Shown: in pieces, positions 13,636 through 38,000 of the stretch
Layout: each line of letters opens with the position of its first letter
Position numbering within the stretch: the stretch's first letter is position 1
Source of the DNA: Flavobacterium psychrophilum
Lineage (GTDB): Bacteria > Bacteroidota > Bacteroidia > Flavobacteriales > Flavobacteriaceae
Length of the DNA stretch: 45,011 nucleotides
NCBI GenBank assembly: GCA_945874225.1
Contig: CAMCFT010000029.1
Location: forward strand, 1 to 45,011
Reading direction: 5' to 3'
Made by a program: the position numbers and the translations under genes
Notes under the pieces: model-generated
The model's input: only the letters and a program-made list of their open reading frames with translations
Told to the model about the DNA's origin: nothing
Databases searched by the model: none

Positions 13636-13640
13636 AGCTC

Positions 13641-13759
13641 AGATAGCAGGTTGCAGATAGCAGAAAAAGGAAAATCCGTTTCAAAATTAATGAAACGGAT
13701 TTTCTTTTTTAAGGAAAATTTCTAAAATCTGCCATCTGCCATCTGCCTCCTGAAATCTA
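13641..13759. repeat. Inverted AGATAGCAGG/CCATCTGCC repeats around a terminator
   Basis: Left copy at 13641-13663 reads AGATAGCAGGTTGCAGATAG then CAG. The right copy at about 13728-13759 holds ATCTGCCATCTGCCATCTGC followed by CTCCTGAAATCT, the opposite orientation of the same motif. Related copies lie at 28306-28322 and 28735-28751. The right copy runs into the stop codon of the GAPDH gene (13757-13759), and the left one starts 6 bases after the permease stop. Confidence 0.6.
13668..13711. terminator. Bidirectional terminator between permease and GAPDH genes
   Basis: AAAATCCGTTTC pairs perfectly with GAAACGGATTTT around an AAAATTAAT loop. An A-rich stretch lies on the left and a T run on the right, so it can stop transcripts from both convergent genes. 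Confidence 0.88.
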
Positions 13760-26903: not shown

Positions 26904-27395
26904 ATGGAAAATTGGGTCATCAGAAAAATTGAAAAAAAAGATAATCCTGCAGTTGCACAATTAATAAGAGCTGTTTTTGACGAATTAAATATTCCAAAAG
27001 TAGGAACCGCTTATGCTGATCCCTATTTAGATTTGATGTTTGAGGAATACAACAAACCAAAATCGATTTATTTTGTTGTTGAAAATGATGGCAAAATCGT
27101 TGGTGGAGCAGGAGTGGCACCACTTGAAAACGAAGCGGCAACTATTTGTGAATTGCAAAAAATGTATTTTCTGCCTGAGATTAGAGGATTAGGAATTGGA
27201 AGCCAAATGATGCACAACTGTTTGCAAGCTGCCAAGGATTTTGGTTTCGAAAAATGTTATCTCGAAACGATGCCTTTTATGTATGATGCCCAGAAACTCT
27301 ATAAAAAAGTGGGATTTGAATATATTTGTTCTCCTATGGGAAGCACAGGTCACGTATCTTGTCCGGTTTGGATGTTGAAGAATTTAGCCCCCTAA
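26904..27395 (+). CDS. GNAT-family N-acetyltransferase
   Basis: From the ATG at 26904 the product has 163 residues with a standard GNAT fold. The acetyl-CoA loop is LPEIRGLGIGSQMM (an R/Q-x-x-G-x-G motif), followed by CLQAAKDFGFEKCYLET and the tyrosine-bearing AQKLYKKVGFEYI. The substrate is unknown. The final residues LAP and the stop codon are encoded within a G/C-rich dispersed repeat, so the original end of this gene may have been different. prmC follows 35 bases later on the same strand. Confidence 0.88.
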   Translation: MENWVIRKIEKKDNPAVAQLIRAVFDELNIPKVGTAYADPYLDLMFEEYNKPKSIYFVVENDGKIVGGAGVAPLENEAATICELQKMYFLPEIRGLGIGSQMMHNCLQAAKDFGFEKCYLETMPFMYDAQKLYKKVGFEYICSPMGSTGHVSCPVWMLKNLAP

Positions 27396-27412
27396 CCCCC
27401 AAGAGGGGAATT
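27385..27412. repeat. G/C-rich dispersed repeat overlapping the GNAT stop codon
   Basis: TAGCCCCCTAACCCCCAAGA followed by GGGGAATT matches the reverse complement of the copy at 2851-2879 (GCCCCCTAACCCCC..AGGGGGAA). The GNAT stop codon (27393-27395) lies inside the element. It can fold into a C-run/G-run stem. Confidence 0.7.
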
Positions 27413-27430: not shown

Positions 27431-28306
27431 ATGAAAATCAAAGATTACAGAGCCCAATTTATTCAAGAACTTTCGCCAATTTATGATTCTGGCGAAGCAG
27501 AGAGTTTCTTCTATTTGATTTTAGAAGAGATACAGCAATTGAAGAGAATTGATTTGGCTTTGAATCCCGATTTGACTTTTTCTAATGAAGAAATCCAGAT
27601 TTGGAATTCGATTTTAGAACAGTTACAACAAGAAATTCCAATTCAATATCTATTGGGGAAAACCAATTTTTATGGTTTGGATTTTGAGGTTAATGCTACT
27701 GTTTTGATTCCAAGACCAGAAACCGAAGAATTGGTGGAATGGATTATTGAAGATTGCGTCGTTCCTCGCAATGACAATGATTTAAAGATTCTTGACATTG
27801 GAACGGGAAGTGGTTGCATTGCTATTTCATTAGCAAAAAATATTCCGAATGCTCAGGTTTTTGCGATTGACGTTTCTGAAACAGCTTTGGCTACAGCCAA
27901 AAAAAACGCCAAAATCAATGAGGTAAATGTCACTTTTATTCAAAAAAATATTCTTGAAGTTGTCTCCCTGAGCGCAGTCGAAGGGTTAAATCATAAATTT
28001 GATATTATAGTTTCAAATCCACCGTACGTTCGAGAGTTGGAAAAAATGGAAATCAAGAAAAATGTTTTGGACAATGAACCTCATTTGGCTCTTTTCATAG
28101 ATGACAATGATGCTTTGGTATTTTACAAAAAAATAGCTGAATTAGCCCAGAAAAACCTATCCCAAAATGGACAACTATTCTTCGAAATTAATCAATATTT
28201 AGGAAAAGAAATGATTGATTTACTCGAAAAAATGAGTTTCAAAAATATCGAATTAAGGAAAGATATTTATGGAAATGACAGAATGATTAAGGCAAAAATC
28301 AGGTAG
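27431..28306 (+). CDS. prmC: Release-factor glutamine methyltransferase PrmC
   Basis: A 291-residue enzyme that methylates the glutamine of the GGQ motif in peptide-chain release factors. The N-terminal helical domain (1-85) is followed by the Rossmann methyltransferase: IPRPETEELVEWI (93-105), SAM motif I LDIGTGSGCIAISLA (121-135), and the catalytic SNPPYV at 195-200. Two loops look foreign: residues 108-117 (DCVVPRNDND) and 177-187 (VVSLSAVEGLN). Both are encoded by sequences resembling dispersed intergenic repeats inserted in frame. All catalytic motifs are intact, so the enzyme is probably active. The stop codon overlaps yet another repeat family. Cotranscription with the GNAT gene is likely. 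Confidence 0.93.
   Translation: MKIKDYRAQFIQELSPIYDSGEAESFFYLILEEIQQLKRIDLALNPDLTFSNEEIQIWNSILEQLQQEIPIQYLLGKTNFYGLDFEVNATVLIPRPETEELVEWIIEDCVVPRNDNDLKILDIGTGSGCIAISLAKNIPNAQVFAIDVSETALATAKKNAKINEVNVTFIQKNILEVVSLSAVEGLNHKFDIIVSNPPYVRELEKMEIKKNVLDNEPHLALFIDDNDALVFYKKIAELAQKNLSQNGQLFFEINQYLGKEMIDLLEKMSFKNIELRKDIYGNDRMIKAKIR
27752..27780. repeat. Dispersed repeat inserted in frame in prmC (copy 1)
   Basis: GATTGCGTCGTTCCTCGCAA followed by TGACAATGA resembles the repeat GATTGCTTCGTTCCTCGCAA..TGACA that I recall from intergenic regions of many bacteria. It encodes DCVVPRNDND in a surface loop between the ETEELVEWI helix and SAM motif I. It is palindromic around its centre only weakly. No second copy is visible in this window, so the repeat status relies on recollection. 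Confidence 0.55.
27961..27987. repeat. Dispersed repeat inserted in frame in prmC (copy 2)
   Basis: CCCTGAGCGCAGTCGAAGGG with flanking TGTCT and TT is the reverse complement of CCCTTCGACTGCGCTCAGGG, a sequence I recall as a common dispersed repeat in Bacteroidota genomes. It encodes SLSAVEG between the strand before the NPPY motif and the preceding loop. The core has CCCT/AGGG ends that can pair. Confidence 0.6.
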
Positions 28307-28322
28307 CAGATGGCAGGTTTCA
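28306..28322. repeat. Left arm of inverted repeats flanking the small lipoprotein gene
   Basis: GCAGATGGCAGGTTTCA is a perfect 17-base reverse complement of 28735-28751. It starts at the last base of the prmC stop codon and belongs to the same family as the copies at 13641-13759. Confidence 0.7.
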
Positions 28323-28734: not shown

Positions 28735-28751
28735 TGAAACCTGCCATCTGC
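28735..28751. repeat. Right arm of inverted repeats flanking the small lipoprotein gene
   Basis: TGAAACCTGCCATCTGC, the perfect reverse complement of 28306-28322. It ends three bases from the stop codon of the permease gene (28755-28757). Confidence 0.7.
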
Positions 28752-28754
28752 AAA

Positions 28755-29996
28755 CTACTCATAGCGCAACGCTTCAATTGGATCCAGTTTTGCAGCTTTG
28801 ATAGCGGGATATAATCCAGAAACTATTGCTACGGCAAAACTTGTTATAAAGGCCGACATAATTGCAGCCCAAGGAATTACAAATACAAAATCCATTGCAG
28901 TTGCAATTGCAAAACCTATAGAAATACCGAAAACAATTCCCACTAAACCGCCCATTTGACCAATAAGCAATGTTTCTATAAAAAACTGAAATGCGATAGT
29001 GCTCTTTTTGGCTCCAAGTGCTTTTCGAACTCCAATTTCACGAGTGCGTTCTGTAACCGAAACAATCATAATATTCATAAGAGCAATTGACGATCCCAGA
29101 ATCGTAATAATACCAATAAACCAAGAGGCAATTCCCAAATATTGGGTAATGCCCAGGATTCTGTTTATAAGATCATCGCTTCGTACGACAGCAAAATCAT
29201 TGTCTTGTACTGGGCTTAATTTTCTAACTCTACGCATTGTACTGTTGGCGTTGTCGATGGCTTCGTCCAGCATTTCTTTTTTGGCAACCATAACACTCAT
29301 AGTGTAATTTATATTAGGTGCCGTAAATAGAGAACGTGCTACCTGAATAGGAATTAAAACCCTTAAGTCCTGGCTGTTGCCAAATGTGGAACCTTTCTCT
29401 TTTAGTACGCCAATAACTTTGAATTTGGCTCCGCGAATCGAAATTATTTTATCGATGGGATTTATATCTTTTAATATTCCTTTTTGAAAATCCGAGCCTA
29501 CTATGCAATTATAGGTATTGTTTTGGATGTCAAATCCAGTAAAATTTCTTCCTAAGCTAGTTTCTAAACCTGAGTTGACCATAAAATATTCATCAACCCC
29601 AACAATTGTATTTTCGGGATCAGTTTTAGTGGCTTCATATTTAATTTCGGCTGTAGAAGTTGCCGTAAAAGAAACCGAAGTTTCAGTAAGAGGAAATTTA
29701 TATTTGTTTTTAAAAGCTACCGCTTCAGGATATGAAATAATGGGATTTATAATTTCCCTTTCTTCGCCACCGTGTCTTCGAGAGGTATTCTCGTATTGAT
29801 TGATGTTGAAAGTATTCGCTCCCATCGAAGCAAAATCAGATGAAATGGTGTTCTCTAAAGCAGAAACAACCGTTAAAATTCCCACCAAAGCAGTAATTCC
29901 AATAGCAATAATCAGCACAGTAAGAATGGTGCGCAACAATTGGGTTCTGATTGAACCAAAAGCAATTCGGACGTTTTCTCGGAATAATTTAAACAT
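28755..29996 (-). CDS. MacB/FtsX-type ABC transporter permease
   Basis: A 413-residue inner-membrane protein. One transmembrane helix near the N terminus (about 22-45) is followed by a large periplasmic MacB-PCD domain (about 50-270) and three C-terminal helices (about 285-400) with the FtsX signature: VTERTREIGVRKALGAKK in the cytosolic loop and PAIKAAKLDPIEALRYE at the end. Such permeases pair with a LolD/MacB-type ATPase to drive lipoprotein transport, export or envelope remodelling by mechanotransmission. No ATPase gene is next to it in this window, so the partner must be elsewhere. The start is supported by FRENVRIAFGSIRTQLLRT, which is typical. Confidence 0.9.
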   Translation of the reverse strand: MFKLFRENVRIAFGSIRTQLLRTILTVLIIAIGITALVGILTVVSALENTISSDFASMGANTFNINQYENTSRRHGGEEREIINPIISYPEAVAFKNKYKFPLTETSVSFTATSTAEIKYEATKTDPENTIVGVDEYFMVNSGLETSLGRNFTGFDIQNNTYNCIVGSDFQKGILKDINPIDKIISIRGAKFKVIGVLKEKGSTFGNSQDLRVLIPIQVARSLFTAPNINYTMSVMVAKKEMLDEAIDNANSTMRRVRKLSPVQDNDFAVVRSDDLINRILGITQYLGIASWFIGIITILGSSIALMNIMIVSVTERTREIGVRKALGAKKSTIAFQFFIETLLIGQMGGLVGIVFGISIGFAIATAMDFVFVIPWAAIMSAFITSFAVAIVSGLYPAIKAAKLDPIEALRYE

Positions 29997-35000: not shown

Positions 35001-38000
35001 AGACAAGGTTACTGTATCTTCACCACATTCACCAACAATTGGGTCTATGTTTTTACCTGCATAAGATAATGTAGCTTCTATTTTGATAAATTCCGTACCA
35101 GCTATATCGTCGCTCCTACAACCATTAATTAATGATGTTGCTCCATAATTTTGTATACCAGGAGTTACAGGTTTTATATTTACAGTAGAACCTGTTGCAA
35201 CTACTACGCCAAAGTCATCAGTCCATTCAATCACTTCAATCACAGGATTGTTTGGAATTTTAATATTATCAATCGCCCAAACACTGTTTGTCGTGCCACT
35301 ATATGTAAACCGAATTCTTAAATTTGTTAAACCAATATATTGTTGTAAGTCAATAATAACGTGATTATCATTAACTTTAGTTCCAGGGAGATTTCTACAT
35401 CCTCCAACAAAGCCAGGGTAGGGGTTTAAAAATCCGGTACTACTAGGTCCTGTATAATCATATGTCGGACCAGGATTTAATTCAGTCCAATCTACTCCAC
35501 CTCCATCTGTTGAGATTTCTATTTTTAGCCAAGCACCAGCTTCAAGATAGTAGGCTTGATCGAATTCCAATTGCATTGTGGTTAAACCCAAGGTGCTAAA
35601 AATAGGGGTTTCTAATGTTGATAAAGGGGTAATTTTATGAACGTCATTAGGCATATCGATATATTGCGGAATTCCTGCTACAACAGCAAATTTTTTATCA
35701 GTACTGTCATAACAACGACCGTTATATTCATTGGGGCCATTGGTTTCTTTCCAATAAGTATTCTTGCCATTGTCGGCTCCAGCAGACATTTCAGCTTCTC
35801 CATCTACTTGCCATCCTAAATTATTAAGATTGGCAGTATTAAACAAACCACCCTGGTTTACCTCTGAACCAACACCATATTCACTTTCTACAACTACTTG
35901 AACAGTAGCTCCCAAGCAAATAGTATTAAATTCTGTACCATTAATAATGGTAGGGGGTAAATCTGGAGGTATTACGCTTATAATAGCTATTGGTGAAAAA
36001 CCAAAACAATCACCTATCTTTATTACAGCTCTTACCAATGTAGTAACTTGAACATCAAGAACTGTGTAAGTAATATTTGTATTAGCTATTGCAGACCAAT
36101 TTAGACCACCATTTGTAGAATATTCCCAACGGTTTATGCTGCTAGACAATGCAGGATTTATATTCAATTTTAGAGCTACATCTTGTTGTATAGTATTGCC
36201 GTTAACATCTACGGGACAAGCTGTTATTAAAATCACATTAGAGGCATTCGCAATTGTTTGAGTTTGTACATTAAAACCAGTAAGTGTTCCACTATTAATA
36301 GTAGGTGCATTTATAGTAATAATAGTAGAGCACGTGTCGAAATTACCCTGACTGTCTGTAACTGTTAATTTTACAGTATTTGTGCCAATATTATTGCATC
36401 CAAAGGTATTCTTATCAAGGCTAAGCGTTATTGGACCACAATTATCTGTAGATCCATTGTTTATTTGGCTAGGTAAAATGGTTGCTGTGCCTGTAATGCC
36501 ATCTAAAGTAACAACAAGTATATAAGGACTAATACATCTTGCTATAGGTTTTATTGCATCGTTGACTGTTATTGTTTGTGTGACAGTTATAAAATTCCCA
36601 GCATTATCAGTTACCTTATAAATTCTAGTTACTATAACTGGACAAGTACCTAATGATGTATCGCTTACAAATGCAACTACCGGATTGGCAGTACAATTAT
36701 CTGTTTCATTGATAACCACTGTGATGTCAGGTGCTGGAGCAGATCCTGATGCAATAATTGGAACAGGGTTAGATGCAGTTGGTTTTTCATTATCGGTTAC
36801 GGTAACTGTTTGATTGCAAGGAAGAGAAATATTACCGTTCTGGTCAGTTGCTGTCCATACAACGGTAGTTGTCCCAGCTCCAAACAAGTAAGTGGCAGGG
36901 TTTATAATTGTTCCTCCAACTTTAGCAATAAAAGTGAAATTTCCAGCAGTAGTGCAGTTGTCTGAAGCTGTAGGAGTTCCTAATAAAACTGTGGTTGTAC
37001 AATTTCCTGAACCATCACTGTTAGTATTTGCTATTGCTGTTGCAGGACAAGTAATTGTCGGCGCTTGCGCATCTACTACTGTTACGGTTTGTGTTGAAGT
37101 TGTAGTTAAACCAGCTCCATCAGTTGCAGTCCAAGTTACGGTGTTTGGTCCTTTCACCAAACTTGCCGGTGAGCGAGTTACGATTACTGTTGTGCAATTA
37201 TCGGAAGCAGTTGGCGGAGTTAATTGGGAACTCGCATAAGTACAAACCCCAGCATCGGCGTTGACGCTGATGGCTGTTAAGGTTGCTATTGCCGGTGCTT
37301 GCGCATCTACTACTGTTACGGTTTGTGTTGAAGAAGCCGTCAAACCAGCTCCATCAGTTGCAGTCCAAGTTACGGTGTTTGGTCCTTTCACCAAACTTGC
37401 CGGTGAACGAGATACGATTACTGTTGTGCAATTATCGGAAGCAGTTGGCGGAGTTAATTGGGAACTCGCATAAGTACAAACCCCAGCATCGGCATTGACG
37501 CTGATGGCTGTTAAGGTTGCTATTGTCGGTGCTTGCGCATCTATTACTGTTACGGTTTGTGTTGAAGAAGCTGTCAAACCAGCTCCATCAGTTGCAGTCC
37601 AAGTTACGGTGTTTGGTCCTTTCACCAAACTTGCCGGTGAACGAGTTACGATTACTGTTGTGCAATTATCGGAAGCAGTTGGCGGAGTTAATTGGGAACT
37701 CGCATAAGTACAAACCCCAGCATCGGCGTTGACGCTGATGGCTGTTAAGGTTGCTATTGTCGGTGCTTGCGCATCTATTACTGTTACGGTTTGTGTTGAA
37801 GTTGTAGTTAAACCAGCTCCATCAGTTGCAGTCCAAGTTACGGTGGTATTTCCTAACGGAAAAGCCGCAGGAGCATTATTGGTAACCAAAGCTACCGAAC
37901 AATTATCACCACTAGTTGGAGTTCCCAAAGCAACACCAGTTGCAGTACAAGCGGTATTTGTAGTAGTATTTACATTGGCGGGAGCAACTATTGTTGGTAG

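What the first reader, a model, noticed from the sequence alone, without database searches (positions are those of the whole stretch)
27752..27987. Two different dispersed repeats appear inserted in frame inside prmC
The sequence shows two GC-richer islands in prmC: GTTCCTCGCAATGACA (27761-27776) and CCCTGAGCGCAGTCGAAGGG (27966-27985). Both match, from memory, repeats that normally lie between genes in Bacteroidota. They encode loops DCVVPRNDND and SLSAVEG that are not part of the PrmC consensus, in positions between secondary-structure elements, while the SAM-binding and NPPY motifs stay intact. A third repeat family overlaps the stop codon. This would be a protein-coding repeat colonisation similar in principle to Rickettsia palindromic elements, here with two families in one housekeeping enzyme.
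Basis: partly seen in the sequence, partly recalled or inferred. Interest (0 to 1): 0.75.

Follow-up and report, generated by a model that had tools for sequence, protein, structure and literature searches.

The report
Junk-DNA repeats building enzyme loops
In Flavobacterium, two surface loops of the housekeeping enzyme PrmC are built again and again from short repeats that otherwise litter the spaces between genes, so these two spots seem to work as landing pads where non-coding repeat DNA becomes protein.

Summary
Both stretches are real, in frame and made of dispersed repeats. The window's genome is not held, so copies were counted in the 30 genomes with the closest PrmC: the site-1 core (family A, 12-mer) occurs 193 times in 28 of 30 (reversed control 6), the site-2 core (family B, 17-mer) 54 times in 19 of 30 (control 0). 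In 90 prmC genes the same two loops carry, by lineage, A, B, a CCCGAAACTTCGGG palindrome, or tandem 7/8-base arrays. Period-7 arrays lie at site 1 in 22 of 90 and site 2 in 4 of 90, against 0 of 1732 overlapping windows in the rest of the gene body. Corrections: site 1 is mostly a same-length replacement (20 residues in 65 of 90); site 2 is a +6-residue insertion; family A also sits at the extreme C-terminus in 3 of 90. In one genome both loops hold 40-nt perfect inverted copies of an element whose 28-nt core occurs nowhere else there, so one loop probably templated the other. Family A is also in frame in DapF, with empty sites in relatives. It works like Rickettsia palindromic elements and intragenic REPs; the multi-family two-loop hot spot is a new variant. 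The copying mechanism is inferred.

The parts
27431..28306 (+). prmC (release-factor glutamine methyltransferase), 291 aa, host of both repeats
27751..27776 (+). site 1: short form of family A; bases 27752-27775 encode residues 108-115 (DCVVPRND), loop between helix 96-110 and the strand of the SAM-binding motif (118-123)
27961..27985 (+). site 2: family B copy encoding (V)VSLSAVEG, residues 177-185, loop between strand 168-171 and the strand (190-195) leading to NPPY; +6 aa relative to relatives without it
28301..28322 (+). third family: repeat of the 7-base type overlapping the prmC stop codon, left arm of an inverted pair
28735..28756 (+). right arm of the inverted pair of the third family (91% complementary to 28301-28322)
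27386..27412 (+). another repeat (AGCCCCCTAACCCCCAAGAGGGGAATT) that supplies the TAA stop of the gene upstream of prmC; inverted partner at 2849-2875 in the window (85% complementary)

Best explanation
Two surface loops of PrmC are landing pads for several families of short non-coding repeats. SHOWN: (1) the DNA of both loops in the window belongs to families dispersed through related genomes; (2) in other species the same two loops, and not the rest of the gene body, carry period-7/8 tandem arrays, and family A, B and palindrome copies within prmC lie at these two sites, apart from family A copies at the extreme C-terminal end in 3 of 90 genes; (3) a plain family B copy at site 2 adds exactly 6 codons, always in one frame and orientation; (4) state changes on the gene tree are many (at least 6 for 7 family-B carriers), and four divergent carriers share the repeat's silent bases more than the rest of the gene; (5) in one genome the two loops are exact inverted copies of each other over 40 nt. 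INFERRED: repeats are copied into new places by a DNA-level process (REP-type mobilisation or microhomology template switching, including copying from one prmC loop to the other on the opposite strand). Most landings in genes are harmful and lost; in-frame landings in these loops are tolerated, and the encoded peptide can later come under ordinary protein-level constraint.
For: Dispersal: A 193 copies in 28 of 30 genomes (control 6), B 54 in 19 of 30 (control 0), prmC copies included (sums in 50). Specificity: period-7 arrays 22 of 90 at site 1, 4 of 90 at site 2, 0 of 1732 overlapping 60-nt windows elsewhere; period 8: 8 of 90 at site 1, 0 of 1732 elsewhere; periods 5, 6 and 9 none. A/B/palindrome scan of the 90 ORFs, up to 2 mismatches: A at site 1 in 6, B at site 2 in 5 and at site 1 in 1, palindrome at site 1 in 2; elsewhere only A, exact in 3 C-terminal tails and with 2 mismatches in 2. 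Any repeat at either site: 42 of 90. Outside prmC, period-7 arrays lie almost only outside ORFs of 100 aa or more: 2 of 2 in the window, 2 of 2 in G140 stretches, 6 of 7 in G228 stretches once an N run is set aside. Site 2 lengths: 60 residues without repeat (77 of 90), 66 with plain B (6), 70 in 4 array carriers and 2 genes without a detected repeat, 75 in L040. Homoplasy: at least 4 changes for 6 A rows, 16 for 22 array rows, 6 for 7 B rows. Silent bases: four divergent B carriers agree at 6 of 6 third positions; elsewhere 75 of 182 same-residue codons agree in all four and 0 of 177 runs of six do; flanks are not unusually alike. Later constraint: L025/L027 differ from the repeat at 6 and 5 bases, all silent (18 of 63 single changes would be silent). 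Intragenic copying: 40-nt exact inverted match between the loops of L040; its 28-nt core, up to 3 mismatches, occurs only there in G140. Generality: DapF has a 13-residue loop in 49 of 53 loci and A-like inserts in 3 of 53; in-frame A/B copies also lie between Pfam domains of PDH E2, DprA and two glycosyltransferases.
Against: Site 1 length is 20 residues in 65 of 90 genes with or without a repeat, so simple insertion is not what is seen there; replacement or insertion plus compensating deletion is needed and was not observed directly. Family A also lies at the C-terminal end of 3 of 90 genes, so the two loops are not the only tolerant places. Several of the 8 period-8 cases are A/T-rich and partly overlap the native KIL codons, so they are the weakest class. 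No transposase is tied to A or B: 10 Y1-transposase loci have no A/B copy within the fetched flanks, and two genomes without a Y1 hit still hold copies; the only hint is a weak correlation of A with Y1 number (rho 0.41, p 0.026; B p 0.35). The gene tree is a quick one with 37 of 87 inner branches open, so change counts are approximate. Occupancy of the two sites is not significantly associated (7 of 90 both, Fisher p 0.19). The inverted-pair signal rests on four of 70 genes. No protein or expression data.
Confidence: 0.78

Rival explanations
1. Allele exchange: each repeat entered each loop once, long ago, and has been shuffled between species by recombination of prmC segments between Flavobacterium strains.
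For: Identical junctions (NILEVVSLSAVEGL) in distant lineages (L021 and the window) and mixtures of site-1 and site-2 states.
Against: Silent-site identity in the 21 codons on each side of site 2 between distant carriers is near the gene average (WIN-L021 10/13 and 9/16; WIN-L024 11/17 and 9/16; core 0.64-0.65), while the repeat is 6/6; tracts would have to be very short. It does not explain different families at one site or the inverted copies in G140.
Confidence: 0.3
2. Protein-level convergence: the loops are simply hypervariable, and the resemblance to repeats is a by-product of codon usage.
For: Loop length is conserved and many lineages have non-repeat loops (48 of 90 without any detected repeat).
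Against: Exact 12- to 17-mers shared with copies elsewhere in the genomes; period-7 DNA arrays, which are not periodic in codons; hairpin form of A in L015; 0 of 1732 such array windows elsewhere in the gene body.
Confidence: 0.04
3. The paired, facing repeats are functional nucleic-acid elements (mRNA hairpin or invertible segment) that regulate prmC.
For: Facing orientation at the two sites: A at site 1 has one orientation in 6 of 6 and B at site 2 one orientation in 7 of 7; arrays are purine-rich at site 1 (22 of 22 at least 0.53) and pyrimidine-rich at site 2 (4 of 4 at most 0.28); perfect 40-nt inverted pair in L040.
Against: In the window the two sites hold different families and are not copies of each other; inversion between the sites would destroy the SAM-binding core; of 42 genes with a repeat, only 7 have both sites filled.
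Confidence: 0.07

Closest known systems
Rickettsia palindromic elements (RPE; here as described in Di Nocera et al. 2013, PMC3733652)
   Same: Short palindromic repeats that are dispersed and also read in frame within proteins that are likely functional.
   Different: Different organism and sequences; here several unrelated families, including tandem 7-mers, hit the same two loops of one enzyme across a genus; site 1 is at most 21 residues longer than the usual 20 in the genes fetched.
CGTC-tagged REPs, intragenic members (Di Nocera et al. 2013)
   Same: Family A and B copies carry the TGTC variant of the tag next to an imperfect palindrome; that paper reports CGTC repeats in Bacteroidetes, without a dedicated transposase, mainly between genes but also inside them, mostly as head-to-head dimers; the two prmC copies of the window face each other head to head.
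   Different: Stems here are 4-6 bp for short A and B instead of 8-9 bp; the genes named in the parts read (uvrA, uvrB, recB, DNA polymerase I and others) do not include prmC or dapF.
Heptanucleotide direct repeats between genes (TAACTGA repeats of Beggiatoaceae, PMC4679880, search listing only; cyanobacterial STRR heptamers, recalled)
   Same: Tandem 7-base units mostly in intergenic space.
   Different: Here arrays also encode a loop of a conserved enzyme; four loop lengths in the fetched genes are 27 or 41, i.e. 20 plus multiples of 7 residues (21 nt, three units).
Intragenic enterobacterial RU repeats and Coxiella MITEs (PMC2759123, PMC5896051; search listing only)
   Same: Small mobile sequences found within genes, by their titles and abstracts.
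   Different: Larger elements (103-168 bp in the RU abstract) and other families.

Membership tests
CGTC-tagged REP (family A, B) | unpaired CGTC tag (TGTC or CCTC allowed) at one end | tested here: met
   consensus of 73 A and 38 B contexts in the fetched loci: A ends TGACA (reverse TGTCA), B starts TTGTCA
CGTC-tagged REP (family A, B) | stem of 8-9 bp, loop of 4-5 | tested here: not met
   short A 5-6 bp, B 4-5 bp with 12-base loops; the long A form has 5 + 8 bp with a 4-base loop
CGTC-tagged REP (family A, B) | dispersed, mainly between genes | tested here: met
   of 111 distinct contexts in the fetched loci, 16 copies (17 ORF rows) lay inside ORFs of at least 150 aa and more than 40 aa from the ends, 7 of the rows prmC because of the sampling; copies nearer ORF ends were not counted
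CGTC-tagged REP (family A, B) | no dedicated transposase nearby | tested here: met
   no A/B copy in the 10 Y1 transposase loci that one search returned; other Y1 genes not inspected
Rickettsia palindromic elements | in-frame insertion into conserved proteins with empty site in relatives | tested here: met
   prmC site 2: segment 60 aa in 69 and 66 aa in 51 of 120 homologues; DapF 49 of 53 empty, 3 filled, 1 unparsed
Rickettsia palindromic elements | sequence homology to an RPE family | not tested
   no RPE sequence was fetched; only the description in PMC3733652 was read
PrmC (release factor glutamine methyltransferase) | PrmC N-terminal domain, SAM motif and NPPY | tested here: met
   PF17827 hit, DIGTGSG and SNPPY intact, PDB relatives 1nv8 and 2b3t

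The most novel reading that the evidence does not exclude
The two prmC loops act as a self-renewing pair of coding cassettes: a repeat that lands in one loop is copied in inverted form into the other by template switching on the opposite strand, and 7-base arrays grow there in 21-base (three-unit) steps, so intergenic repeat DNA keeps generating new loop peptides in a housekeeping enzyme.
Probability: 0.35. Interest if true: 0.78.

Novelty: new variant of a known kind. Interest (0 to 1): 0.62.

Why it matters
How transposase-less REPs spread, and whether intergenic repeats feed protein evolution, are open questions. One conserved gene with two landing pads, many independent fillings, empty sites in relatives, a decayed copy with the peptide kept, and a genome in which one loop seems to have copied the other gives a natural experiment that strain sequencing or a reporter could turn into measured rates and mechanism.

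Tried and rejected
Counting repeats in the window's own genome: not held. A Y1/RAYT mobiliser: Y1 hits are in 28 of 30 genomes, but none of the 10 loci inspected has A/B nearby, and genomes G031 and G152 have copies without a Y1 hit; left open. Recombination of long prmC tracts: the flanks of site 2 are not unusually alike. Association of filling at the two sites: not significant. Strict CGTC-REP membership: stem length not met. 'Repeats only at the two loops': not quite, family A also lies at the C-terminal end in 3 of 90 genes. A literature search by short DNA strings gave 3,861 papers, of which the 30 listed were unrelated by title. Searches for in-frame palindromic elements (3 papers), Flavobacterium dispersed palindromic repeats (0), Rickettsia palindromic elements (20 of 11,155 listed), heptanucleotide repeats (15 of 157 listed), intragenic REPs in Bacteroidetes (5) and PrmC plus repeats (3) showed no title or abstract start describing this case. 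PMC3733652 was read in its outline and abstract, found passages, sections 6 and 15 and part 1 of 2 of section 17; all other papers by search listing only.

Rows dropped: L184 (motif not matched) and duplicate loci before the 90-gene counts; L003 (Chitinophagaceae) left out. DNA of prmC was examined for 90 of the 299 genomes (closest first, then a mixed tail), 89 of them counted, plus the window. The 30 genomes of the copy counts are those with the best PrmC matches, not a random draw. The scan of the gene body did not cover the last bases of each gene. L073 was not sent to Pfam; L086 and L171 gave no Pfam hit, so they are not counted as hosts. For DapF, loci of 53 genomes were read (61 and 30 genomes searched, partly the same); L233 was not parsed.

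Full report
What is there. prmC lies at 27431-28306 (+) and encodes 291 residues with intact SAM and NPPY motifs. Two GC-richer islands are read in frame: AGATTGCGTCGTTCCTCGCAATGACA at 27751-27776 (DCVVPRND, residues 108-115) and TGTCTCCCTGAGCGCAGTCGAAGGG at 27961-27985 (VVSLSAVEG). In the AlphaFold model (mean pLDDT 83.9) site 1 overlaps the end of helix 96-110 and the stretch before strand 118-123, and site 2 lies between strand 168-171 and strand 190-195, so both are essentially loops; mean pLDDT of the ten-residue blocks is 72 at 111-120 and 78-79 at 171-190.

Are they repeats? The window's own genome is not held. In the 30 genomes with the best PrmC matches the 12-mer core of family A occurs 193 times in 28 genomes (6 for the reversed pattern) and the 17-mer core of family B 54 times in 19 genomes (0 for the reversed pattern), copies in prmC included (sums). 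Consensus of the fetched contexts: A GAGATTGCTTCGTTCCTCGCAATGACA (73 contexts), B TTGTCAcCCTGAGCGcAGTCGAAGGG (38 contexts). Some A copies have a longer form with an inner hairpin, as in the prmC of G228 (L015).

Orthologues. Among the 120 best homologues, site 2 is a two-state character: the segment between the SAM motif and NPPY has 60 residues in 69 and 66 in 51; 50 of the 51 match the LSAVEG-type pattern and the last, P0004, reads LSAIEG. Site 1 varies in content: VPRND-type peptides, FDSAQDDS (family B read on the other strand, seen as DNA in L040), PETSG (the CCCGAAACTTCGGG palindrome) and array-encoded peptides. In the DNA of 90 genes (89 genomes plus the window; L184 dropped because its motif did not match) site 1 spans 20 residues in 65, with or without repeats. 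Here the repeat has mostly replaced the native loop rather than lengthened it. At site 2 the 90 genes have 60 residues without a detected repeat (77), 66 with a plain B copy (6), 70 in the 4 array carriers and in 2 genes without a detected repeat, and 75 in the composite L040.

Two loops, plus the tail. Scoring tandem periodicity blindly along each gene, period-7 arrays reach the threshold at site 1 in 22 of 90 genes and at site 2 in 4 of 90, against 0 of 1732 overlapping 60-nt windows elsewhere (the last bases of each gene were not covered); period 8 gives 8 of 90 at site 1 and 0 of 1732; periods 5, 6 and 9 give none. Several period-8 cases are A/T-rich and run into the native KIL codons. A scan for A, B and the palindrome with up to 2 mismatches finds A at site 1 in 6, B at site 2 in 5 and at site 1 in 1, the palindrome at site 1 in 2, and outside the two sites only A: exact copies, opposite orientation, within the last ten or so residues of 3 genes (L026, L037, L038) and 2-mismatch matches in 2. 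With the two decayed B copies counted, B is at site 2 in 7 of 90. Altogether 38 of 90 carry a repeat at site 1, 11 of 90 at site 2 and 42 of 90 at either. Outside prmC, 7-base arrays mostly miss ORFs of 100 aa or more: 2 of 2 in the window, 2 of 2 in the G140 stretches, 6 of 7 in the G228 stretches after setting aside a run of N. Loop lengths of 27 and 41 residues at site 1 (L023, L107, L118, L128) equal 20 plus multiples of 7, as frame-keeping growth of a 7-base array would give; three of the four are array-positive, but an array gene of 25 (L115) and the composite of 32 (L040) do not fit.

History. On a gene tree built without the loops, the fewest changes are 4 for the 6 A carriers, 16 for the 22 array carriers at site 1 and 6 for the 7 B carriers at site 2; the tree is a quick one with 37 of 87 inner branches open. 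Family A also fills site 1, in the same frame, in L191, whose PrmC is 68% identical to the window's. The four divergent B carriers WIN, L015, L021 and L024 agree at all six third positions of the repeat; elsewhere 75 of 182 comparable codons agree in all four and no run of six does (0 of 177). Pair by pair the excess is modest (0.04-0.15 per pair). Silent identity of the 21 codons on each side is ordinary. So the repeat looks younger than the gene split or refreshed from other copies. In L025 and L027, by contrast, the repeat has drifted at 6 and 5 bases, all silent, and TLSAVEG is kept; with 18 of 63 single changes silent, six of six silent has a chance of about 0.0006 under neutrality (the two are close kin, so this counts once, and the starting sequence is assumed to be the family form).

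Inverted partners. In L040 (genome G140, prmC on a single 4.5-Mb contig) the two loops match exactly as inverted copies over 40 nt, and a 28-nt core of that element, allowing 3 mismatches, occurs in the genome only at these two places. Across the 70 genes then in hand, site 1 resembles the reverse complement of site 2 of the same gene more than that of other genes (0 of 10,000 permutations reach the observed sum; four genes reach the score of 11: L040, L118, L128, L115). Arrays are purine-rich at site 1 (22 of 22 at 0.53 or more) and pyrimidine-rich at site 2 (4 of 4 at 0.28 or less); A at site 1 has one orientation in 6 of 6. Similar facing pairs exist outside prmC in the window: 28301-28322 with 28735-28756, and 7-base arrays at 13640-13664 and 13727-13747 around a hairpin between two converging ORFs. 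The simplest reading is that facing copies arise by a general inverted-copying process, not by a prmC-specific function. In the window itself the two loops hold different families.

Generality. In G228 family A is read in frame in DapF; 49 of 53 DapF loci have the 13-residue loop without it, 3 of 53 (L215, L246, L249) have an insert that is A or, by eye, a decayed A, one was not parsed. None of the 50 DapF loops parsed has a 7-base array (highest score 4 against a threshold of 10), so prmC site 1 is exceptional by that one comparison. A or B copies also lie in frame between Pfam domains of a PDH E2 component (L098), DprA (L069) and two glycosyltransferases (L056, L155), and beyond the domain of a DUF5675 protein (L085).

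Mechanism. Shown: repeat identity, position, frame, replacement or +6 gain, homoplasy, one exact inverted pair within the gene. Inferred: template switching or REP-type mobilisation as the copying process, loss of harmful landings, later protein-level constraint. Y1 transposase hits exist in 28 of 30 genomes, but the 10 loci inspected have no A/B copy, and the copy-number correlation is weak for A and not significant for B.

Known and new. Di Nocera et al. 2013 (PMC3733652; outline, abstract, passages, sections 6 and 15 and part 1 of 17 read; [quoted passage not shown] Families A and B share the TGTC tag but not the 8-9 bp stem. What I did not find in the listings is a genus-wide pair of loops in one enzyme filled by several unrelated repeat classes, with inverted copies between them.

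Noticed in passing
window 27386-27412 and 2849-2875: A CCCCCTAACCCCC repeat supplies the stop codon (TAA, 27393-27395) of the acetyltransferase-like (my reading) gene upstream of prmC; an inverted partner lies just before the ATG of the ORF at 2879.
   Followed up: partly
window 13640-13758: Two facing 7-base arrays (CAGATAG / ATCTGCC) flank a hairpin between two converging ORFs, the same layout as the 28301/28735 pair.
   Followed up: partly
window 37054-37845: 3.4 tandem copies of a 234-bp unit (96% match).
   Followed up: no
L086 1345-2208: An ORF without a Pfam hit (it looks NAD-epimerase-like to me) contains ITLSAVEG in frame and a second odd segment TANAPSASLRKPF, possibly two repeat-derived inserts in one protein.
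   Followed up: no
L171 3390-3984: A 7-base array of nearly 600 bases outside long ORFs in G140.
   Followed up: no
L026, L037, L038 (last ten or so residues of prmC): Exact family A copies in opposite orientation form the C-terminal end of prmC; in L038's genome G031 the copy abuts the end of the match. The window's third family overlaps the stop at the same end.
   Followed up: partly
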